The notes under the pieces are model-generated. The model was not told the DNA's origin. It saw nothing but the letters and a program-made list of their open reading frames with translations, and made no database searches. This document shows, piece after piece, positions 1 to 44,303 of a stretch of DNA of 44,303 bases (position 1 is the stretch's first letter; each line of letters starts with the position of its first letter). This stretch comes from Verrucomicrobiota bacterium (GTDB taxonomy: Bacteria; Verrucomicrobiota; Verrucomicrobiia; Opitutales; Opitutaceae). A program made the translations under genes and the position numbers. The DNA lies in NCBI GenBank assembly GCA_016235555.1, contig JACRKC010000078.1:1-44303 (forward strand), read 5' to 3'.

Positions 1-71
1 CGCCGAACCCCGCCGCTGGGCGAACGGGGAATCCGGTTTCGAATCGGCGGGGTTCGGCGACCCCGCCCTAC
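1..71 (-). repeat. GTAGGGC-type palindromic repeat at the 3' end of the esterase gene
   Basis: Read on the minus strand, this begins GTAGGGCGGGG and forms a hairpin (GGCGGGGT, loop, ACCCCGCC), then a second GC-rich inverted section that runs off the window edge. Its leading TAG is the stop codon of the esterase at 68-964. Related elements occur at 1744-1828, 16336-16361 and 19491-19599. The hairpin directly after the stop may also act in termination or mRNA 3'-end protection (inference). Confidence 0.7.
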
Positions 72-1743: not shown

Positions 1744-1828
1744 GGTGGGGCCGGTTCTCCGAACCGGCCTGGGTTCCAGTTCGCGAATCGCCCTCAAACC
1801 CAGGCCCGCTCGGAGAGCGGGCCCTACC
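1744..1828. repeat. GGTRGGGCC-type palindromic repeat between convergent genes
   Basis: An 85-bp element bounded by GGTGGGGCC and its near inverse GGGCCCTACC. Inside are two hairpins (GGCCGGTTC/GAACCGGCC and GGCCCGCTC/GAGCGGGCC) and a central AAACCCAGGC/GCCTGGGTTC inverted pair. The CTA at 1824-1826 is the reverse complement of the TAG stop of the oxidoreductase gene, so the repeat end supplies that stop. The same outline returns at 19491-19599. Confidence 0.8.
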
Positions 1829-3167
1829 CCGGATACTCCCAGCCCTTCCGATACGCGCGGCGCAGCAGTTTGTTCGCCTCGGGATCCCCGGTGATCGTTT
1901 CCTTCGCGGCGTTCCAATTGAGGCTGCGGCCGACCTTCATGCTCAACACCGCGAGCAGCGAACAGTTCGTCGAGAGGTGGCCCGCCTCGATGTCACTCAC
2001 GGGACGGCGGCCCGTCCTGATCGCCTCGAGAAAATCCGCCCACAGCTCGCGAATGTTCTGTCCGTCGGGCTGGTTGAGTTTCGCGGCCTCGTGCAGCACC
2101 GGCTCCCCCGGGTTGGCCGGAAAAAACGTCCAGCCGCCGCGCCAGCCCACCTGGAAGACGCCCTTCGTGCCGTAGAAATTCGCGCCGGCGTTGTCGCCTT
2201 TCTCGCCGGTGTGGCCGGCGAACTGGCGCGACTCCCACGTCATCGTGAATTTCTCAAACTCGAACGTCGCCGCCTGGTGATCCGGCGCATCCGTCGTCTG
2301 CTCGTTGGGCGTGAGCACCGGCGGCCCCTTGACCGGCCGCCCGCCCGCGGCGAACACGCGCCGCGGCGCCTGCTCGCCGGTGATCCACAACACCTGATCG
2401 AACCAGTGGATGCCCCAGTCGCCGAGCGTGCCGTTGGCGTAGTCGAGATACTGCCGGAAACCGCGCGGGTGGATGCCGCGGTGGTCAGCGGTGCCGTTGA
2501 ACGGTCGCAGCGGCGCCGGCCCGCACCACCCGTCCCAGTCGAGCTCCGGCGGCACGGGCATGGTGGGCAGCGGTTTCTCGGGGCCGCCGCCACTGGTGTT
2601 GACGAAGCAGCGGATCATGCCGATCTCGCCCGCCTTGCCGGAGCGGATCAACTCGCGCGCCTGGATCGTGTGCGGCGAGGTGCGGCGGTGCGTGCCGACC
2701 TGCACGACGCGGTTGGCCGCGCGCGCCGCGTTCACCATCGCGCGTCCCTCGGCGATCGTGTGGGCGATCGGTTTTTCAACGTAGACGTGCGCGCCGGCCT
2801 TCACCGCGGCAATCGTCGGCAGCGCATGCCAGTGGTCCGGTGTCGCGACGATCACGATCTCGGGTTTTTCCTTTTCGAGCAGCTCGCGGTAGTCGCGGTA
2901 TTTCCGCGGCTGGTCGCCCGTGCCCTGGGCGACCTGCCCGACCTTCGCCGCGAATTGCCGCGCATCGACGTCGCAGAGCCCGACGATTTCGCAGGCGCCG
3001 CTCGCCATGGCCTCGCCGAGGATGTTGCCGCCCCACCAGCCGCAGCCGACGAGGGCCGTGCGGAATCTGCGGCCGGATTTCTCGGCGGCGCGGGTTTTGA
3101 CGGCGAACGGCAGCGCGGCGAGCGTGCCCGCGGCGGCGCTGGTGTGGAGGAACGTGCGGCGGTTCAT
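1824..3167 (-). CDS. Gfo/Idh/MocA family oxidoreductase, Tat-exported
   Basis: A 447-aa NAD(P)-dependent oxidoreductase-like protein. The N-terminus MNRRTFLHTSAAAGTLAALP is a twin-arginine (Tat) signal, so it is probably exported folded with cofactor. The Rossmann core shows LVGCGWWG (GxGxxG) from about residue 38, then ATPDHWH and VEKPIAHT (the EKP motif of the family). Later come HRRTSPHT and DWGIHWFDQVLWITGE, typical of the exported 'sugar dehydrogenase' paralogues abundant in Verrucomicrobiota and Planctomycetes. Substrates are probably sugars or sugar acids, but the sequence does not say which. The stop codon lies in a palindromic repeat. It is divergent from the APC permease, with a MITE between the two starts. 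Family is confident. Confidence 0.93.
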   Translation of the reverse strand: MNRRTFLHTSAAAGTLAALPFAVKTRAAEKSGRRFRTALVGCGWWGGNILGEAMASGACEIVGLCDVDARQFAAKVGQVAQGTGDQPRKYRDYRELLEKEKPEIVIVATPDHWHALPTIAAVKAGAHVYVEKPIAHTIAEGRAMVNAARAANRVVQVGTHRRTSPHTIQARELIRSGKAGEIGMIRCFVNTSGGGPEKPLPTMPVPPELDWDGWCGPAPLRPFNGTADHRGIHPRGFRQYLDYANGTLGDWGIHWFDQVLWITGEQAPRRVFAAGGRPVKGPPVLTPNEQTTDAPDHQAATFEFEKFTMTWESRQFAGHTGEKGDNAGANFYGTKGVFQVGWRGGWTFFPANPGEPVLHEAAKLNQPDGQNIRELWADFLEAIRTGRRPVSDIEAGHLSTNCSLLAVLSMKVGRSLNWNAAKETITGDPEANKLLRRAYRKGWEYPG

Positions 3168-13439: not shown

Positions 13440-14825
13440 ATGCTGCCCCGTCTCGTCCTCTCCACCGCCTTCGTGCTCACCGGCACCTCGGTCTTCGCCG
13501 CCACCACGATCACCCGCGGTCCGTATCTCCAGATCGCCACGCCCACGAGCATGGTCGTCCGCTGGCGCACCGACGCGGCCGAGATCTCCACCGTCACCTA
13601 CGGACTCGAGCGCGAAAAACTCACCGCGGCCGCAGCCAAAGGTGATGGCACTGCCGCCACCAAGATCGAAGGCGTCCTCACCGCCAAGGCCGAGGGCGTC
13701 TCCACCGAGCACATCGTCCACCTCAAGGACCTCAAACCCGACACCCGCTATTTCTACCGCGTCGGCACCGGCCTCGAAAAGGCCCCCTCCGCCACCGCCG
13801 AGGACGCCCCCGGCGTGCCCGCCATCAACACCTTCACCACCCCGCCGCTCGTCGGTCCCGCCAAGCCCACCCGCATCTGGGTCCTCGGCGACCCCGGCAC
13901 CAAGAACGACACCCAGCGCGCCGTCCGCGACGTCTATTACAAGTTCACCGGCAAACGCGCCACCGACCTCTGGCTCCTCCTCGGCGACAACGCCTACCCC
14001 GACGGCACCGACACCGATTACCAGAAAGCCATCTTCGAAATGTATCCCGAGACGCTCCGCACTTCACCGCTGTGGCCCGCCCTCGGCAACCACGACGGCA
14101 AGAGCGCCAACTCCATCACGCAGTCCGGCGTCTACTACGACATCTTCACGCTGCCCACGATGGGCCAGGCCGGCGGCGTCCCCTCCGGCACCGAGGCCTA
14201 CTATTCCTTCGACCACGCCAACATCCACTTCGTCTGCCTCGACTCCCACGACACCGTGCGCACCGCCGACGGTGCCATGCTGCAATGGCTCAAGGCCGAC
14301 CTCGCCGCCACCCAGCGCGACTGGATCATCGCCTACTTCCACCATCCGACCTACACCAAGGGCACGCACGACTCCGACAAGGACAGCGACTCCGGCGGCC
14401 GCATGAACGACATGCGCGCCATCTTCCTCCCCGTGCTCGAAGCCGGCGGCGTGGACGTCATCCTCACCGGTCACTCCCACGTCTACGAACGCTCCCCGCT
14501 CCTCGACGGTCACTACGGCAAGAGCCCGACCTTCGACGCCGCCAGGCACGTGAAACAAAAAGGCAACGGCCGCCCCGAGCGCGACGGCGTCTACGTGAAG
14601 CCCCGCACCCGCGCTGCCCACGCCGGCGAAGTCTCCGTCGTCACCGGCAGCGCCGGCCACGCCGGCTCCAAGACCAAGCCGCCTCCGCTCAACCACCCCG
14701 CGATGATCGTCAGCTACAACGACCCCGGCTCGAGCGTGATCGACATCGACGGCCTCCGCCTCGACCTCACCTTCCTCAACGACAAAGGCGAGAAGCGCGA
14801 CTGGTTCACGATCCAGAAAAAGTAG
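13440..14825 (+). CDS. Secreted purple-acid-phosphatase-like metallophosphoesterase
   Basis: A 461-aa exported enzyme. Signal peptide to about residue 20 (VFAA), then an N-terminal fibronectin-like domain of the purple acid phosphatase type (TRGPYLQIATPTSMVVRWRT). The metallophosphatase core carries the dinuclear-metal motifs in order: GDPG (150), GDNAY (182), GNHD (216), FHHPTY, and GHSHVYERS (344). It likely hydrolyses phosphomonoesters or diesters outside the inner membrane; specificity is unknown. It is the last gene of the close string starting at 11862. Its TAG stop is followed six bases later by a short perfect hairpin at 14832-14850, shared with the convergent LapA-like gene. Confidence 0.92.
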   Translation: MLPRLVLSTAFVLTGTSVFAATTITRGPYLQIATPTSMVVRWRTDAAEISTVTYGLEREKLTAAAAKGDGTAATKIEGVLTAKAEGVSTEHIVHLKDLKPDTRYFYRVGTGLEKAPSATAEDAPGVPAINTFTTPPLVGPAKPTRIWVLGDPGTKNDTQRAVRDVYYKFTGKRATDLWLLLGDNAYPDGTDTDYQKAIFEMYPETLRTSPLWPALGNHDGKSANSITQSGVYYDIFTLPTMGQAGGVPSGTEAYYSFDHANIHFVCLDSHDTVRTADGAMLQWLKADLAATQRDWIIAYFHHPTYTKGTHDSDKDSDSGGRMNDMRAIFLPVLEAGGVDVILTGHSHVYERSPLLDGHYGKSPTFDAARHVKQKGNGRPERDGVYVKPRTRAAHAGEVSVVTGSAGHAGSKTKPPPLNHPAMIVSYNDPGSSVIDIDGLRLDLTFLNDKGEKRDWFTIQKK

Positions 14826-14831
14826 TCGTGG

Positions 14832-14850
14832 ACGAGGCGGGACGCCTCGT
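14832..14850. terminator. Short hairpin between convergent genes
   Basis: ACGAGGCG-GGA-CGCCTCGT is a perfect 8-bp stem with a 3-base loop. It matches the inner arm of the family A MITE and may be a remnant of one. It has no T tract, so any terminator role is weak. It sits between the convergent stops at 14825 and 14862. Confidence 0.45.
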
Positions 14851-15624: not shown

Positions 15625-15630
15625 ATTATT

Positions 15631-15703
15631 GAACAGGAAGAACGGAAAGGCCGGGAAGAAACTCGTCTCGTCATCCTTCCCGCTCTTCCCGGCCTTCCTG
15701 TTC
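15631..15703. repeat. Palindromic repeat just upstream of the cyclase gene
   Basis: GAACAGGAAG (15631-15640) pairs with CTTCCTGTTC (15694-15703), and AAGGCCGGGAAG (15647-15658) pairs with CTTCCCGGCCTT (15685-15696). It ends 15 bases before the cyclase ATG, so its stem would lie in that mRNA's leader. Confidence 0.65.
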
Positions 15704-15718
15704 GAAACCGAACTCCTC

Positions 15719-16339
15719 ATGCCCCTCATCGACATCACCCACCCGCTCTCCAACGCCACCGCTCCGTGGCCCGGCGACACACAGTTCCACTTCGAGTTCG
15801 TCTGCCGCATCAGCCCGGGCATCGCCGCCAACGTCGGCAAATTCACCAGCGGCATCCACAGCGGCACGCACATGGACGCCCCGCTGCACTACAACAACTC
15901 CGGCGTCTCCATCGACCGCCTCGATCTCGACATCCTGCTCGGCCCCGCCCGCGTGTTCCTCGCCCAGAACACCCTGACCCTCACCCGCGAGCACTTCGCC
16001 GGCCTCGACGCCCGCGCCACCCCGCGCGTGCTGGTCCGCACCAACCACTGCGACGACAAAACGAAATTCCCCGCGCGCATCCCCATCCTCGCCCCCGACG
16101 TGCCCGCGTGGCTCGGCGAGCAAGGCGTCCGCCTCATCGGCCTCGACCTCCCGTCCGTCGATCAGACCGACGACCCGTCGATGCAGATCCACCACCGCCT
16201 CGAAAAGGCGAACATCATCATCCTCGAAAACCTCGACCTCCGCGCCGCCGCCCCCGGCATCTACGAACTCATCGCCCTCCCCTTGAAAATCGCCGGCGCC
16301 GAAGGCTCACCCATCCGCGCCGTGTTGCGCACTCCGTAG
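15719..16339 (+). CDS. Cyclase-family / kynurenine-formamidase-like hydrolase
   Basis: A 206-aa metal-dependent hydrolase. From the ATG at 15719 it reads MPLIDITHPLSNATAPWPGD, the usual family start; the in-frame ATG 30 codons upstream lies in a repeat. The metal-binding signature HSGTHMDAPLHY is at residues 47-58 (His47, His51, Asp53, His57). Known relatives hydrolyse N-formylkynurenine or isatin, but many cyclase-family proteins act on other amides or lactones. There are no other kynurenine-pathway genes here, so the substrate is open. Its TAG stop is the first part of a GTAGGGC hairpin repeat. Confidence 0.9.
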   Translation: MPLIDITHPLSNATAPWPGDTQFHFEFVCRISPGIAANVGKFTSGIHSGTHMDAPLHYNNSGVSIDRLDLDILLGPARVFLAQNTLTLTREHFAGLDARATPRVLVRTNHCDDKTKFPARIPILAPDVPAWLGEQGVRLIGLDLPSVDQTDDPSMQIHHRLEKANIIILENLDLRAAAPGIYELIALPLKIAGAEGSPIRAVLRTP

Positions 16340-16361
16340 GGCCGGCGCTTGCCGCCGGCCC
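16336..16361 (+). repeat. GTAGGGC hairpin repeat at the cyclase stop codon
   Basis: The TAG stop at 16337-16339 leads straight into a 9-bp perfect stem (GGGCCGGCG at 16339-16347 with CGCCGGCCC at 16353-16361, loop CTTGC). The G of the stop codon is already in the stem. Same type as at 1-71 and 1744-1828. Confidence 0.7.
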
Positions 16362-19400: not shown

Positions 19401-19468
19401 AAGGCGAAACCGTCGGCGAACTCGTCTGGGCCTCACCCATGTGGATCAAATACGAGCCGAAGCGTTGA
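16412..19468 (+). CDS. Large secreted protein: beta-propeller-like repeats plus PHP-like metallohydrolase domain
   Basis: A 1018-aa exported protein. Signal peptide to about residue 20 (AFAFLLALFASFTLAHA), a beta-rich N-terminal domain with a Lys/Gly-rich insert (about 85-105), then propeller-type repeats up to about residue 640. Repeated phrases are VAVAPDGTTYVAHI, DGRGVAWIVWSE, DASGRVWIAWQG, DGRVAIAWDTYEKGDYDVW and DRQNRLWVCWEL. From about residue 670 comes a PHP-like (DUF3604/CehA-type) metal site: GEFHRHTEISGDGG (His677, His679), NGDHDNG (Asp712, His713, Asp714), HTSATSMG (His802) and SSDHGS (Asp874, His875). A C-terminal beta domain (VRVKFAGTAPFKKVTLVKDD) closes it. It may cleave a phospho- or ester bond in a polymer recognised by the propeller. 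The start at 16412 is set by the signal peptide. Substrate unknown. Confidence 0.85.
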   Translation: MKAFAFLLALFASFTLAHANETGVRLRFGLTDQSNTKWDGTVSVSPGRVDSISGWRFQQSDKVEGITGWKAETRPLTVRRTNAQKQKQKAGGGKKKGKAAAAAEGPIADNGVILHLVDVTEDSEVSVTTPQGRFSFKLSEIPYGKVAEKLGGAVDLERTAATRTLTKARTDDDYPAVAVAPDGTTYVAHISFTPGIDRDERVRQWTKAPADFAFLATPPGGDQLWLRVVKNGRPGEPIAVTPGKGDIYKVALAVDGRGVAWIVWSENAAWQNPAAPANFEIWARSFSAGTLSAPVNLSNHAGSDTNAVAATDASGRVWIAWQGARDGAFRILSRHQTASGWSETERVSTQTRTCWTPAIATAADGRVAIAWDTYEKGDYDVWLREFDAAGKAGPAQPVTSSPQYEARPALTYDRQNRLWVCWELSGPTWGKDWGALVRDEGIGLYRDRQIGMRILEAGKWLAPDAAVATGLPGARMRRGPAALPVRRPEAEAIARTAGEEADEAGAGIYNNLGRIVCDRDGRIWLLARSREGNFHTPQGTVWMNYATYFDGAKWTGPILLPHSDNLLYNLPAVATHPAGGLVIAHSSDHRQGRHVQQFRAGSDTDRDPFDNDVFLSRLEFPATAKVAATLKPARATPNAAAKATPTTERERRDIAAARAYRFAHEGKSLRIVRGEFHRHTEISGDGGNDGPLEDMWRYAIDVAGMDWLGNGDHDNGQGREYTWWLTQKTTDAFRIPGVFEPPFTYERSVRFPEGHRNAVFEQRGVRTLPRLPISERSPEVHAPDTLMFFDYLKQLNGVCASHTSATSMGTDWRDWGGAVEPMVEIYQGARQNYERPGAPRSPTAADAIGGWEPTGFVNLAFKRGYRFSFQSSSDHGSTHISYALVLAEDNSRAALLKAMRQRHTYAATDNIIAEYTCTTGGRTYLMGDEFTSATPPTVRVKFAGTAPFKKVTLVKDDVEIVLGEPNKTEVDYTWTDPNPVAGKTSYYYVRGEQSAGEGETVGELVWASPMWIKYEPKR

Positions 19469-19490
19469 GCGAACGCCTCGCTTTCTTTGG

Positions 19491-19599
19491 TAGGGCCGCC
19501 TCTCCGAGGCGGCCTGAGTTCCAAGCCGGTCCTCACTCGAGGCCACCGGGCCACTTTTCGACGTTAAACCCAGGCCGGCTGTGGAGAGCCGGCCCCACC
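19491..19599. repeat. GGTRGGGCC-type palindromic repeat overrunning the HupE-like gene start
   Basis: About 109 bp, opening GGTAGGGCCGCCTCTCCGAG and closing with the inverse GCCGGCCCCACC. It shares the inner AAACCCAGGC and TGAGTTCC blocks with the element at 1744-1828, plus about 25 extra central bases. Its right end reaches into the reading frame of the gene that follows. Confidence 0.75.
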
Positions 19600-34501: not shown

Positions 34502-34650
34502 CGCAGCGACACTGAAATTTCGTCGGGTGTAGCCGCGCGTGAGCAAGTGGTTTCGAGAATCCCGTAGCCGTTGGTGTAGGTCGGGGTTGATCCCCGACGC
34601 GTCGGGCGTAAAGCCCGACCTGCGCGCCGAGCGCGGCTACCCGTCAACTT

Positions 34651-44046: not shown

Positions 44047-44227
44047 ACTGAGTCTCGCGAAATAGGGTGACAAAGAGCTTGATGGTTCGGGGAGCGCACC
44101 CGTCTCGGGTGCTGGGGCCGGCGTCTCGCCGGCACCTCCGAGGTCCTCGGCGAGACGCCGAGGACAGCCCGCGGGACGCGGGCGCTCCCCGAACCACCGC
44201 GTGTCACTCAATTATGCGAGCCTCAGT
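44047..44227 (-). mobile_element. Palindromic element, family B copy 2 (181 bp, inverted)
   Basis: Inverse of the element at 34651-34831 and exactly as long. It opens ACTGAGTCTCGCGAAATAGG and ends ATTATGCGAGCCTCAGT, with the same inner hairpins (GCCGGCGTCTCGCCGGC, TCCTCGGCGAGACGCCGAGGA partly shown). No protein gene lies between 43984 and the window end. Confidence 0.8.
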
Positions 44228-44229
44228 AG

Positions 44230-44303
44230 GTTCATACTTTCCATGGCAGGCCCGTCCGGTGGGCGGGCTGTCCGGCCACCGGCCGGGCCTACCGTCCGAA
44301 AGC
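44230..44303. mobile_element. Palindromic repeat, family D copy 3, cut by the window edge
   Basis: CATACTTTCCATGGCAGGCC, then GGGCGGGCTGTCCGGCCACC and GGCCGGGCCTACCGTCCGAA, match the inner part of family D copy 2 at 37130-37205 with changes. It directly follows family B copy 2. Confidence 0.65.

What the first reader, a model, noticed from the sequence alone, without database searches (positions are those of the whole stretch)
1744..1828. A repeat family supplies the stop codons of several genes
The TAG of the esterase (68-70), the oxidoreductase (1824-1826) and the cyclase (16337-16339) is in each case the TAG of a GTAGGGC repeat that leads at once into an 8-9-bp hairpin. Three of three such gene ends in one window is unlikely to be chance. 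The repeats have either inserted across native stops, trimming the C-termini, or are favoured there because they give a stop plus a protecting hairpin.
Basis: partly seen in the sequence, partly recalled or inferred. Interest (0 to 1): 0.68.

Follow-up and report, generated by a model that had tools for sequence, protein, structure and literature searches.

The report
Mobile palindromes that supply stop codons
Short palindromic repeats of a known mobile kind sit exactly on the ends of several genes, where their own TAG ends the protein at about its usual place; this habit of the repeat class is already described in print.

Summary
The three TAGs are real; each belongs to a GTAG head followed at once by an 8-9 bp hairpin. 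"Three of three" is too strong: a fourth GTAGGGC-hairpin copy (19490) lies 21 bases past a TGA. These are GTAG-type REPs (repetitive extragenic palindromes) of an Opitutaceae-like genome. The genome carries RAYT transposase genes; one is flanked by copies identical to the esterase's repeat.

In 1.6 Mb (20% of the genome) 15 of 198 GTAG REPs supply the stop of a called gene, against about one per base position just downstream.

C-termini are not clearly trimmed: for the 7 of 15 such genes that I could compare, the nearest orthologue (79-90% identical) stops within two codons of ours. The esterase could not be judged.

Best explanation: RAYT-mobilised REPs land at gene ends. A copy that hits the stop survives when its TAG is in frame, since protein length is kept. 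Out-of-frame insertions would extend the protein (median 34 residues in simulation); none was seen among GTAG REPs.

Di Nocera et al. 2013 (PMC3733652) already state that GTAG REP termini often provide the TAG stop of flanking ORFs. New member of a known kind; a protecting or regulatory role is untested.

The parts
46..71 (-). GTAG REP, 26 nt (family B); its TAG at 68-70 is the esterase stop
   Evidence: identical hairpin flanks a RAYT gene in L009
68..1033 (-). esterase / alpha-beta hydrolase ORF, 321 aa, ends on the REP's TAG
   Evidence: Pfam BD-FAE E 1e-28; missed by my gene caller
1..20 (+). probable inverted partner of the repeat at 46-71, cut by the start of the contig
   Evidence: sequence and fold; not scored by the finder
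1803..1827 (-). GTAG REP, 25 nt (family A); its TAG at 1824-1826 is the oxidoreductase stop
1745..1769 (+). GTGG-headed REP, inverted partner in the same dimer between two convergent genes
   Evidence: the dimer folds as one long hairpin
1824..3167 (-). Gfo/Idh/MocA-type oxidoreductase, 447 aa
   Evidence: orthologues
16336..16360 (+). GTAG REP, 25 nt (loop CTTGC); its TAG at 16337-16339 is the cyclase stop
15629..16339 (+). cyclase / arylformamidase-like gene, 236 aa as given by the first TTG
   Evidence: Pfam Cyclase E 7e-20; orthologues
19490..19514 (+). GTAG REP (family A) that does not supply a stop: 21 bases past the TGA at 19466-19468

Best explanation
The repeats are GTAG-type REPs, short single-strand-folding palindromes mobilised by RAYT (REP-associated tyrosine transposase) enzymes encoded in the same genome. 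They settle mostly outside genes and often close to gene ends. When a copy lands on or just before a native stop so that its head reads xxG-TAG in frame, the element's own amber codon replaces the native stop and the protein keeps its length, so the insertion is tolerated. Copies in the two other frames would be read through and lengthen the protein, and are lost. Shown here: identity as GTAG REPs, RAYT genes flanked by REPs, excess of TAG on stops, near-unchanged C-termini, absence of out-of-frame GTAG copies near stops. Inferred: that RAYTs moved these copies, that the TAG came with the element, and that selection on protein ends is the filter.
For: Head and hairpin: GTAG before an 8-bp hairpin 138 vs 3.95 expected, GTGG 102 vs 8.8. 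Genome-wide copies: 50 matches of one family's pattern against 11 of the reversed control. RAYTs: 10 Y1_Tnp matches; 5 of 10 have REPs within 1.5 kb, three on both sides. The two I tested score 108 bits on NCBIfam REP_Tyr_transpos, cut-off 80. One RAYT (L009) is flanked by copies identical to the esterase's repeat. Another (L167) has a left REP that is itself the stop of a 1113-aa gene. Position: 15 of 198 GTAG REPs on a stop, 37 in the 37 positions 3-39 downstream. C-termini, nearest orthologue minus ours: 0, -1, 0, +2, 0, +2, 0 in 7 genes. Frame: in simulated insertion one position in three gives a TAG stop and the other two give read-through, median +34 aa. 0 of 198 GTAG heads were found inside a called gene within 250 nt of its stop. 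Family B has T before GTAG in 10 of 10 and family A has G in 96% of 57.
Against: The excess on stops (15 of 24 near-stop copies) is somewhat above blind insertion with frame filter (0.4 expected, binomial P 0.02), so some preference may exist. GTGG REPs do occur inside gene ends (5 within 250 nt), so read-through insertions are not always lost. Two of the 7 nearest orthologues have GTAG at the stop without a repeat, which would also fit insertion beside a pre-existing GTAG. No closely related strain with an empty site exists in the data. For the YebC-like gene 5 of 8 relatives are 7-10 residues longer, though the nearest is equal. The second-nearest orthologue of the L022 gene is 7 longer. I tested 7 of the 15 called genes.
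Confidence: 0.78

Rival explanations
1. Target choice: the element inserts beside a pre-existing GTAG, as IS200/IS605 elements insert beside a fixed target tetranucleotide, and G-TAG stops are simply common GTAG sites near gene ends.
For: Non-REP GTAGs near gene ends are mostly stops: 130 at the stop, 8 at distances 3-9, 77 at 10-39. The nearest orthologue of the oxidoreductase (ACGTAG) and of the L167 gene (TGGTAG) has GTAG at the same codon without a repeat. It predicts unchanged C-termini.
Against: The other 5 of 7 nearest orthologues end in TGA; but stop identity is poorly kept anyway (2 of 9 non-REP TAG genes keep TAG), so this says little. At an intragenic family-B copy (L020) none of 6 relatives (57-73% identical) has GTAG at the empty place. 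Biochemistry in PMC8266576 (passages) treats GTAG as the guide carried by the REP, with cleavage at CT or CA.
Confidence: 0.12
2. Adaptive use: copies at stops are kept because a hairpin starting directly after the stop protects the mRNA 3' end or tunes translation.
For: REPs of both heads crowd the first bases after stops: 9 GTAG and 22 GTGG at distances 3-9. Passages of PMC12306157 report that E. coli REPs within 15 nt of a stop stall ribosomes and lower translation. An orthologue in another Opitutae genome (L225) also has a GTAG hairpin exactly on the stop of the L167 gene.
Against: Blind insertion with a frame filter gives most of the excess. The genes are of mixed function. No RNA data. 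Strict REPs are scarce in the fetched relatives: 29 in 1.07 Mb of partly overlapping loci. So these sites are mostly not conserved, as lasting benefit would predict.
Confidence: 0.15
3. Trimming: the repeats inserted within coding ends and cut off native C-termini.
For: Three of 7 genes differ from the nearest orthologue by one or two codons, two of them shorter.
Against: 0 to 2 codons in 7 of 7 nearest comparisons, like non-REP genes (25 of 30 within two). Profiles are matched close to their ends, e.g. TIGR01033 to 238 of 238.
Confidence: 0.04
4. Chance coincidence of a common heptamer with stop codons.
For: GTAGGGC alone is only modestly enriched in the window (6 vs 2.37).
Against: GTAG plus hairpin is 35-fold enriched and piles up at the stop in two separate samples: 10 of 139 and 5 of 59.
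Confidence: 0.01

Closest known systems
GTAG-type REPs (Di Nocera et al. 2013, PMC3733652; section 15 read, other passages seen)
   Same: GTAG or GTGG head, 6-9 bp stem, dimers in opposite orientation, location after genes; the paper says REP termini often provide the TAG stop of flanking ORFs and that Opitutus terrae is rich in them
   Different: Here counted with a local control and compared with orthologues; the families' consensus was not compared with the paper's figure, which is not held
RAYTs and REPtrons (Nunvar et al. 2010, PMC2817692; passages seen)
   Same: Y1 transposase gene flanked by REPs, HUH and tyrosine motifs, NF047646 above cut-off for two
   Different: No activity shown here; 5 of 10 Y1_Tnp matches had no REP within 1.5 kb
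IS200/IS605 insertion sequences
   Same: Related Y1 transposase and hairpin ends
   Different: The two tested proteins are below the NF033573 IS200/IS605 cut-off (26.4 and 21.5 vs 55 bits)
REPINs (Bertels and Rainey 2011, PMC3116915; passages seen)
   Same: Inverted pairs of REPs with a short spacer, as at 1745-1827
   Different: Excision was not examined here

Membership tests
GTAG-type REP | GTAG/GTRG tetranucleotide directly 5' of a palindrome | tested here: met
   138 vs 3.95 expected for GTAG, 102 vs 8.8 for GTGG
GTAG-type REP | 20-40 bp, high copy number | tested here: met
   25-26 nt; 198 GTAG and 178 GTGG copies in 1.595 Mb
GTAG-type REP | Predominantly extragenic, near gene 3' ends | tested here: met
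   176 of 198 GTAG copies outside called genes; distances
GTAG-type REP | Dimers in opposite orientation | tested here: met
   window 1745-1827 and many paired places
RAYT-REP system (REPtron) | RAYT gene in the genome flanked by REPs of the same type | tested here: met
   L009, L167 and L039 flanked on both sides; two of them score above NF047646 cut-off, L039 not scored
RAYT-REP system (REPtron) | RAYT cleaves and moves the REP | not testable with these tools
   needs protein and DNA in vitro or population sequencing
IS200/IS605 element | Transposase above the family cut-off | tested here: not met
   26.4 and 21.5 bits against 55, two proteins tested
Intrinsic terminator | Hairpin followed by a T run | tested here: not met
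   read in the sequence after the three stop-supplying hairpins: at most three T in a row; no terminator scan was run

The most novel reading that the evidence does not exclude
RAYT-driven insertion, or its retention, prefers stop codons beyond what frame filtering explains, so that this REP class acts as a portable stop-plus-hairpin cassette that converts gene ends to a standard 3' end without changing protein length.
Probability: 0.15. Interest if true: 0.5.

Novelty: new member of a known kind. Interest (0 to 1): 0.27.

Why it matters
It shows that a mobile element can take over a stop codon without altering the protein. It also gives a countable test of how REP insertions are filtered at gene ends: in-frame TAG copies kept, out-of-frame copies absent. 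For annotation, TAG stops sitting in a REP head need not mean a truncated gene. It supports, with numbers and orthologues, a statement made in print in 2013.

Tried and rejected
A first pattern (GTAGGGCN{5,25}GGGGTC) found 2 places against 5 of the reversed control and was dropped as unspecific. One search failed on a file name; only wrote a module. In one search the fourth query used wrong coordinates (strand confusion), gave no family and was dropped. Stop-codon identity as a test of pre-existing TAG was dropped because it is poorly conserved in general (2 of 9). One row (window_13 against L085) is a match to the own genome and was not counted. The intragenic copies in L042 and the dimer in L020 lie in variable linkers and could not fix the insertion point. 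The alignment of L237 ends at a contig end and was not counted. The copy at 34576 has a 7-bp stem and was below the finder's threshold, as was the L225 hairpin (7 bp).

A search for papers holding both Opitutus terrae and 'repetitive extragenic' gave none, although PMC3733652 writes 'O. terrae'. I make no claim that anything is not in print.

Full report
What was checked. Each is part of GTAGGGC and is followed directly by a perfect stem of 8, 9 and 8 bp. GTAGGGC occurs six times in the window, 2.37 expected, and 3 of 100 shuffles reach six. Four copies head a hairpin; three of them supply a stop and one (19490 +) has 21 bases between it and a TGA. So it is three of four, not three of three.

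What it is. In a first sample of 802 kb (40 stretches chosen around repeat or transposase matches, plus the window) GTAG stands directly before an 8-bp hairpin 138 times against 3.95 expected, and GTGG 102 against 8.8. One family pattern alone has 50 places in the 8.03-Mb genome against 11 for the reversed control. Many places come in inverted pairs. A second sample of 793 kb was chosen without regard to repeats, though on contigs that had already come up. Together the 1.595 Mb hold 198 GTAG and 178 GTGG copies. Ten places in the genome match the Y1_Tnp family. Five of the ten have REPs within 1.5 kb, three on both sides, and five have none. The two of these proteins that I scored pass the NCBIfam REP_Tyr_transpos cut-off (108.1 and 108.5 against 80 bits). 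The L009 RAYT is flanked by copies identical to the esterase's 26-nt repeat.

Is the overlap with stops more than chance? With my own simple gene caller (558 and 644 genes), 10 of 139 and 5 of 59 GTAG copies have their TAG as a gene's stop. At distances 3-9 and 10-39 downstream there are 9 and 28, about one per position, so the stop position holds roughly fifteen times as many. One of the 15 genes (L053, score 24, built of repeat sequence) is doubtful, and the window's esterase is a sixteenth case that the caller missed. Most GTAG copies, 183 of 198, supply no called stop. GTGG copies, which cannot supply one, crowd the first bases after stops (22 at distances 3-9).

Are proteins trimmed? For 7 of the 15 genes I found orthologues of 79-90% identity. 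Nearest orthologue minus ours, in codons: oxidoreductase 0, cyclase -1, threonine ammonia-lyase-like (L024) 0, L029 +2, YebC-like (L139) 0, L022 (14975) +2, L167 (1113 aa) 0. Other relatives vary more. For the YebC-like gene 5 of 8 are 7-10 longer and 3 of 8 equal. For L022 the second-nearest is 7 longer and a distant one equal. The esterase's nearest orthologue is only 65% identical and 15 longer, the next two +1 and +6, so it cannot be judged. Of 30 gene pairs without a REP on the stop, 17 have equal length and 25 lie within two codons. So trimming beyond one or two residues is not seen in the compared genes.

How it most likely works. If a GTAG REP is placed blindly around a native stop, one position in three puts its TAG in frame, with a length change of +1, 0, -1, -2 and so on; the other two positions read through the repeat, with a median of 34 added residues. 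Not one of the 198 GTAG heads lies inside a called gene within 250 nt of its stop, while five GTGG heads do. In-frame TAG copies therefore survive and out-of-frame ones do not. Allowing four in-frame positions against six downstream ones, 15 of 24 is a little more than the 0.4 expected (P about 0.02), so a further preference for stops is possible but not established.

Element-borne or pre-existing GTAG? Every family keeps a characteristic base before the head: T in 10 of 10 family-B copies, G in 96% of 57 family-A copies. An extended target would give the same pattern, so this alone does not decide. At the intragenic family-B copy in a helicase gene (L020) none of 6 relatives (57-73% identical) has GTAG at the empty place. 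At stops, the nearest orthologue has GTAG without a repeat in 2 of 7 genes. Passages of PMC8266576 describe GTAG as the guide carried by the REP, with cleavage at CT or CA. I therefore favour an element-borne TAG, but the data here do not exclude target choice.

What is known. [quoted passage not shown] it is amber). The same paper says that O. [quoted passage not shown] The phenomenon is thus in print; the counts, the frame test and the orthologue comparison in this genome are what I add. Passages of PMC12306157 cite work that REPs within 15 nt of a stop stall ribosomes in E. coli; a hairpin that starts directly after the stop would be the extreme case, but no RNA or protein data exist here.

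Verdict. A real and non-random feature, correctly seen, with an interpretation that needs mending: known mobile palindromes that take over stop codons without clear change of the protein end.

Noticed in passing
window 1-71 and 44226-44292: The contig starts inside a REP dimer and ends beside GTAG palindromes, so assembly breaks probably fall on these repeats.
   Followed up: no
L020 9049-11760 (-): A helicase gene (Pfam Helicase_C_2 and DEAD_2) carries a REP dimer near residue 588 and a single REP near residue 818 as in-frame inserts compared with relatives.
   Followed up: partly
L167 14207-14871: A RAYT gene with REPs on both sides directly follows a 1113-aa gene, whose stop is the TAG of the left REP.
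   Followed up: partly
L225, end of the match: In another Opitutae genome the orthologue of the L167 1113-aa gene also ends TGG-TAG with a 7-bp hairpin directly after the TAG, with a different stem.
   Followed up: partly
window 34646-34833/44045-44232; 3209-3315/42380-42486; 4733-4814/37326-37407: Long inverted repeat pairs (188 nt at 95%, 107 nt at 89%, 82 nt at 95%) that are larger than the REPs.
   Followed up: no
several loci, e.g. window 14820-14850, L031, L143, L150: The GTGG family with core GAGGCGTCCCGCCTC often follows a stop at the same short distance (TAGTC before GTGG in 5 copies of 46), so another family may also abut stops in a fixed way.
   Followed up: partly
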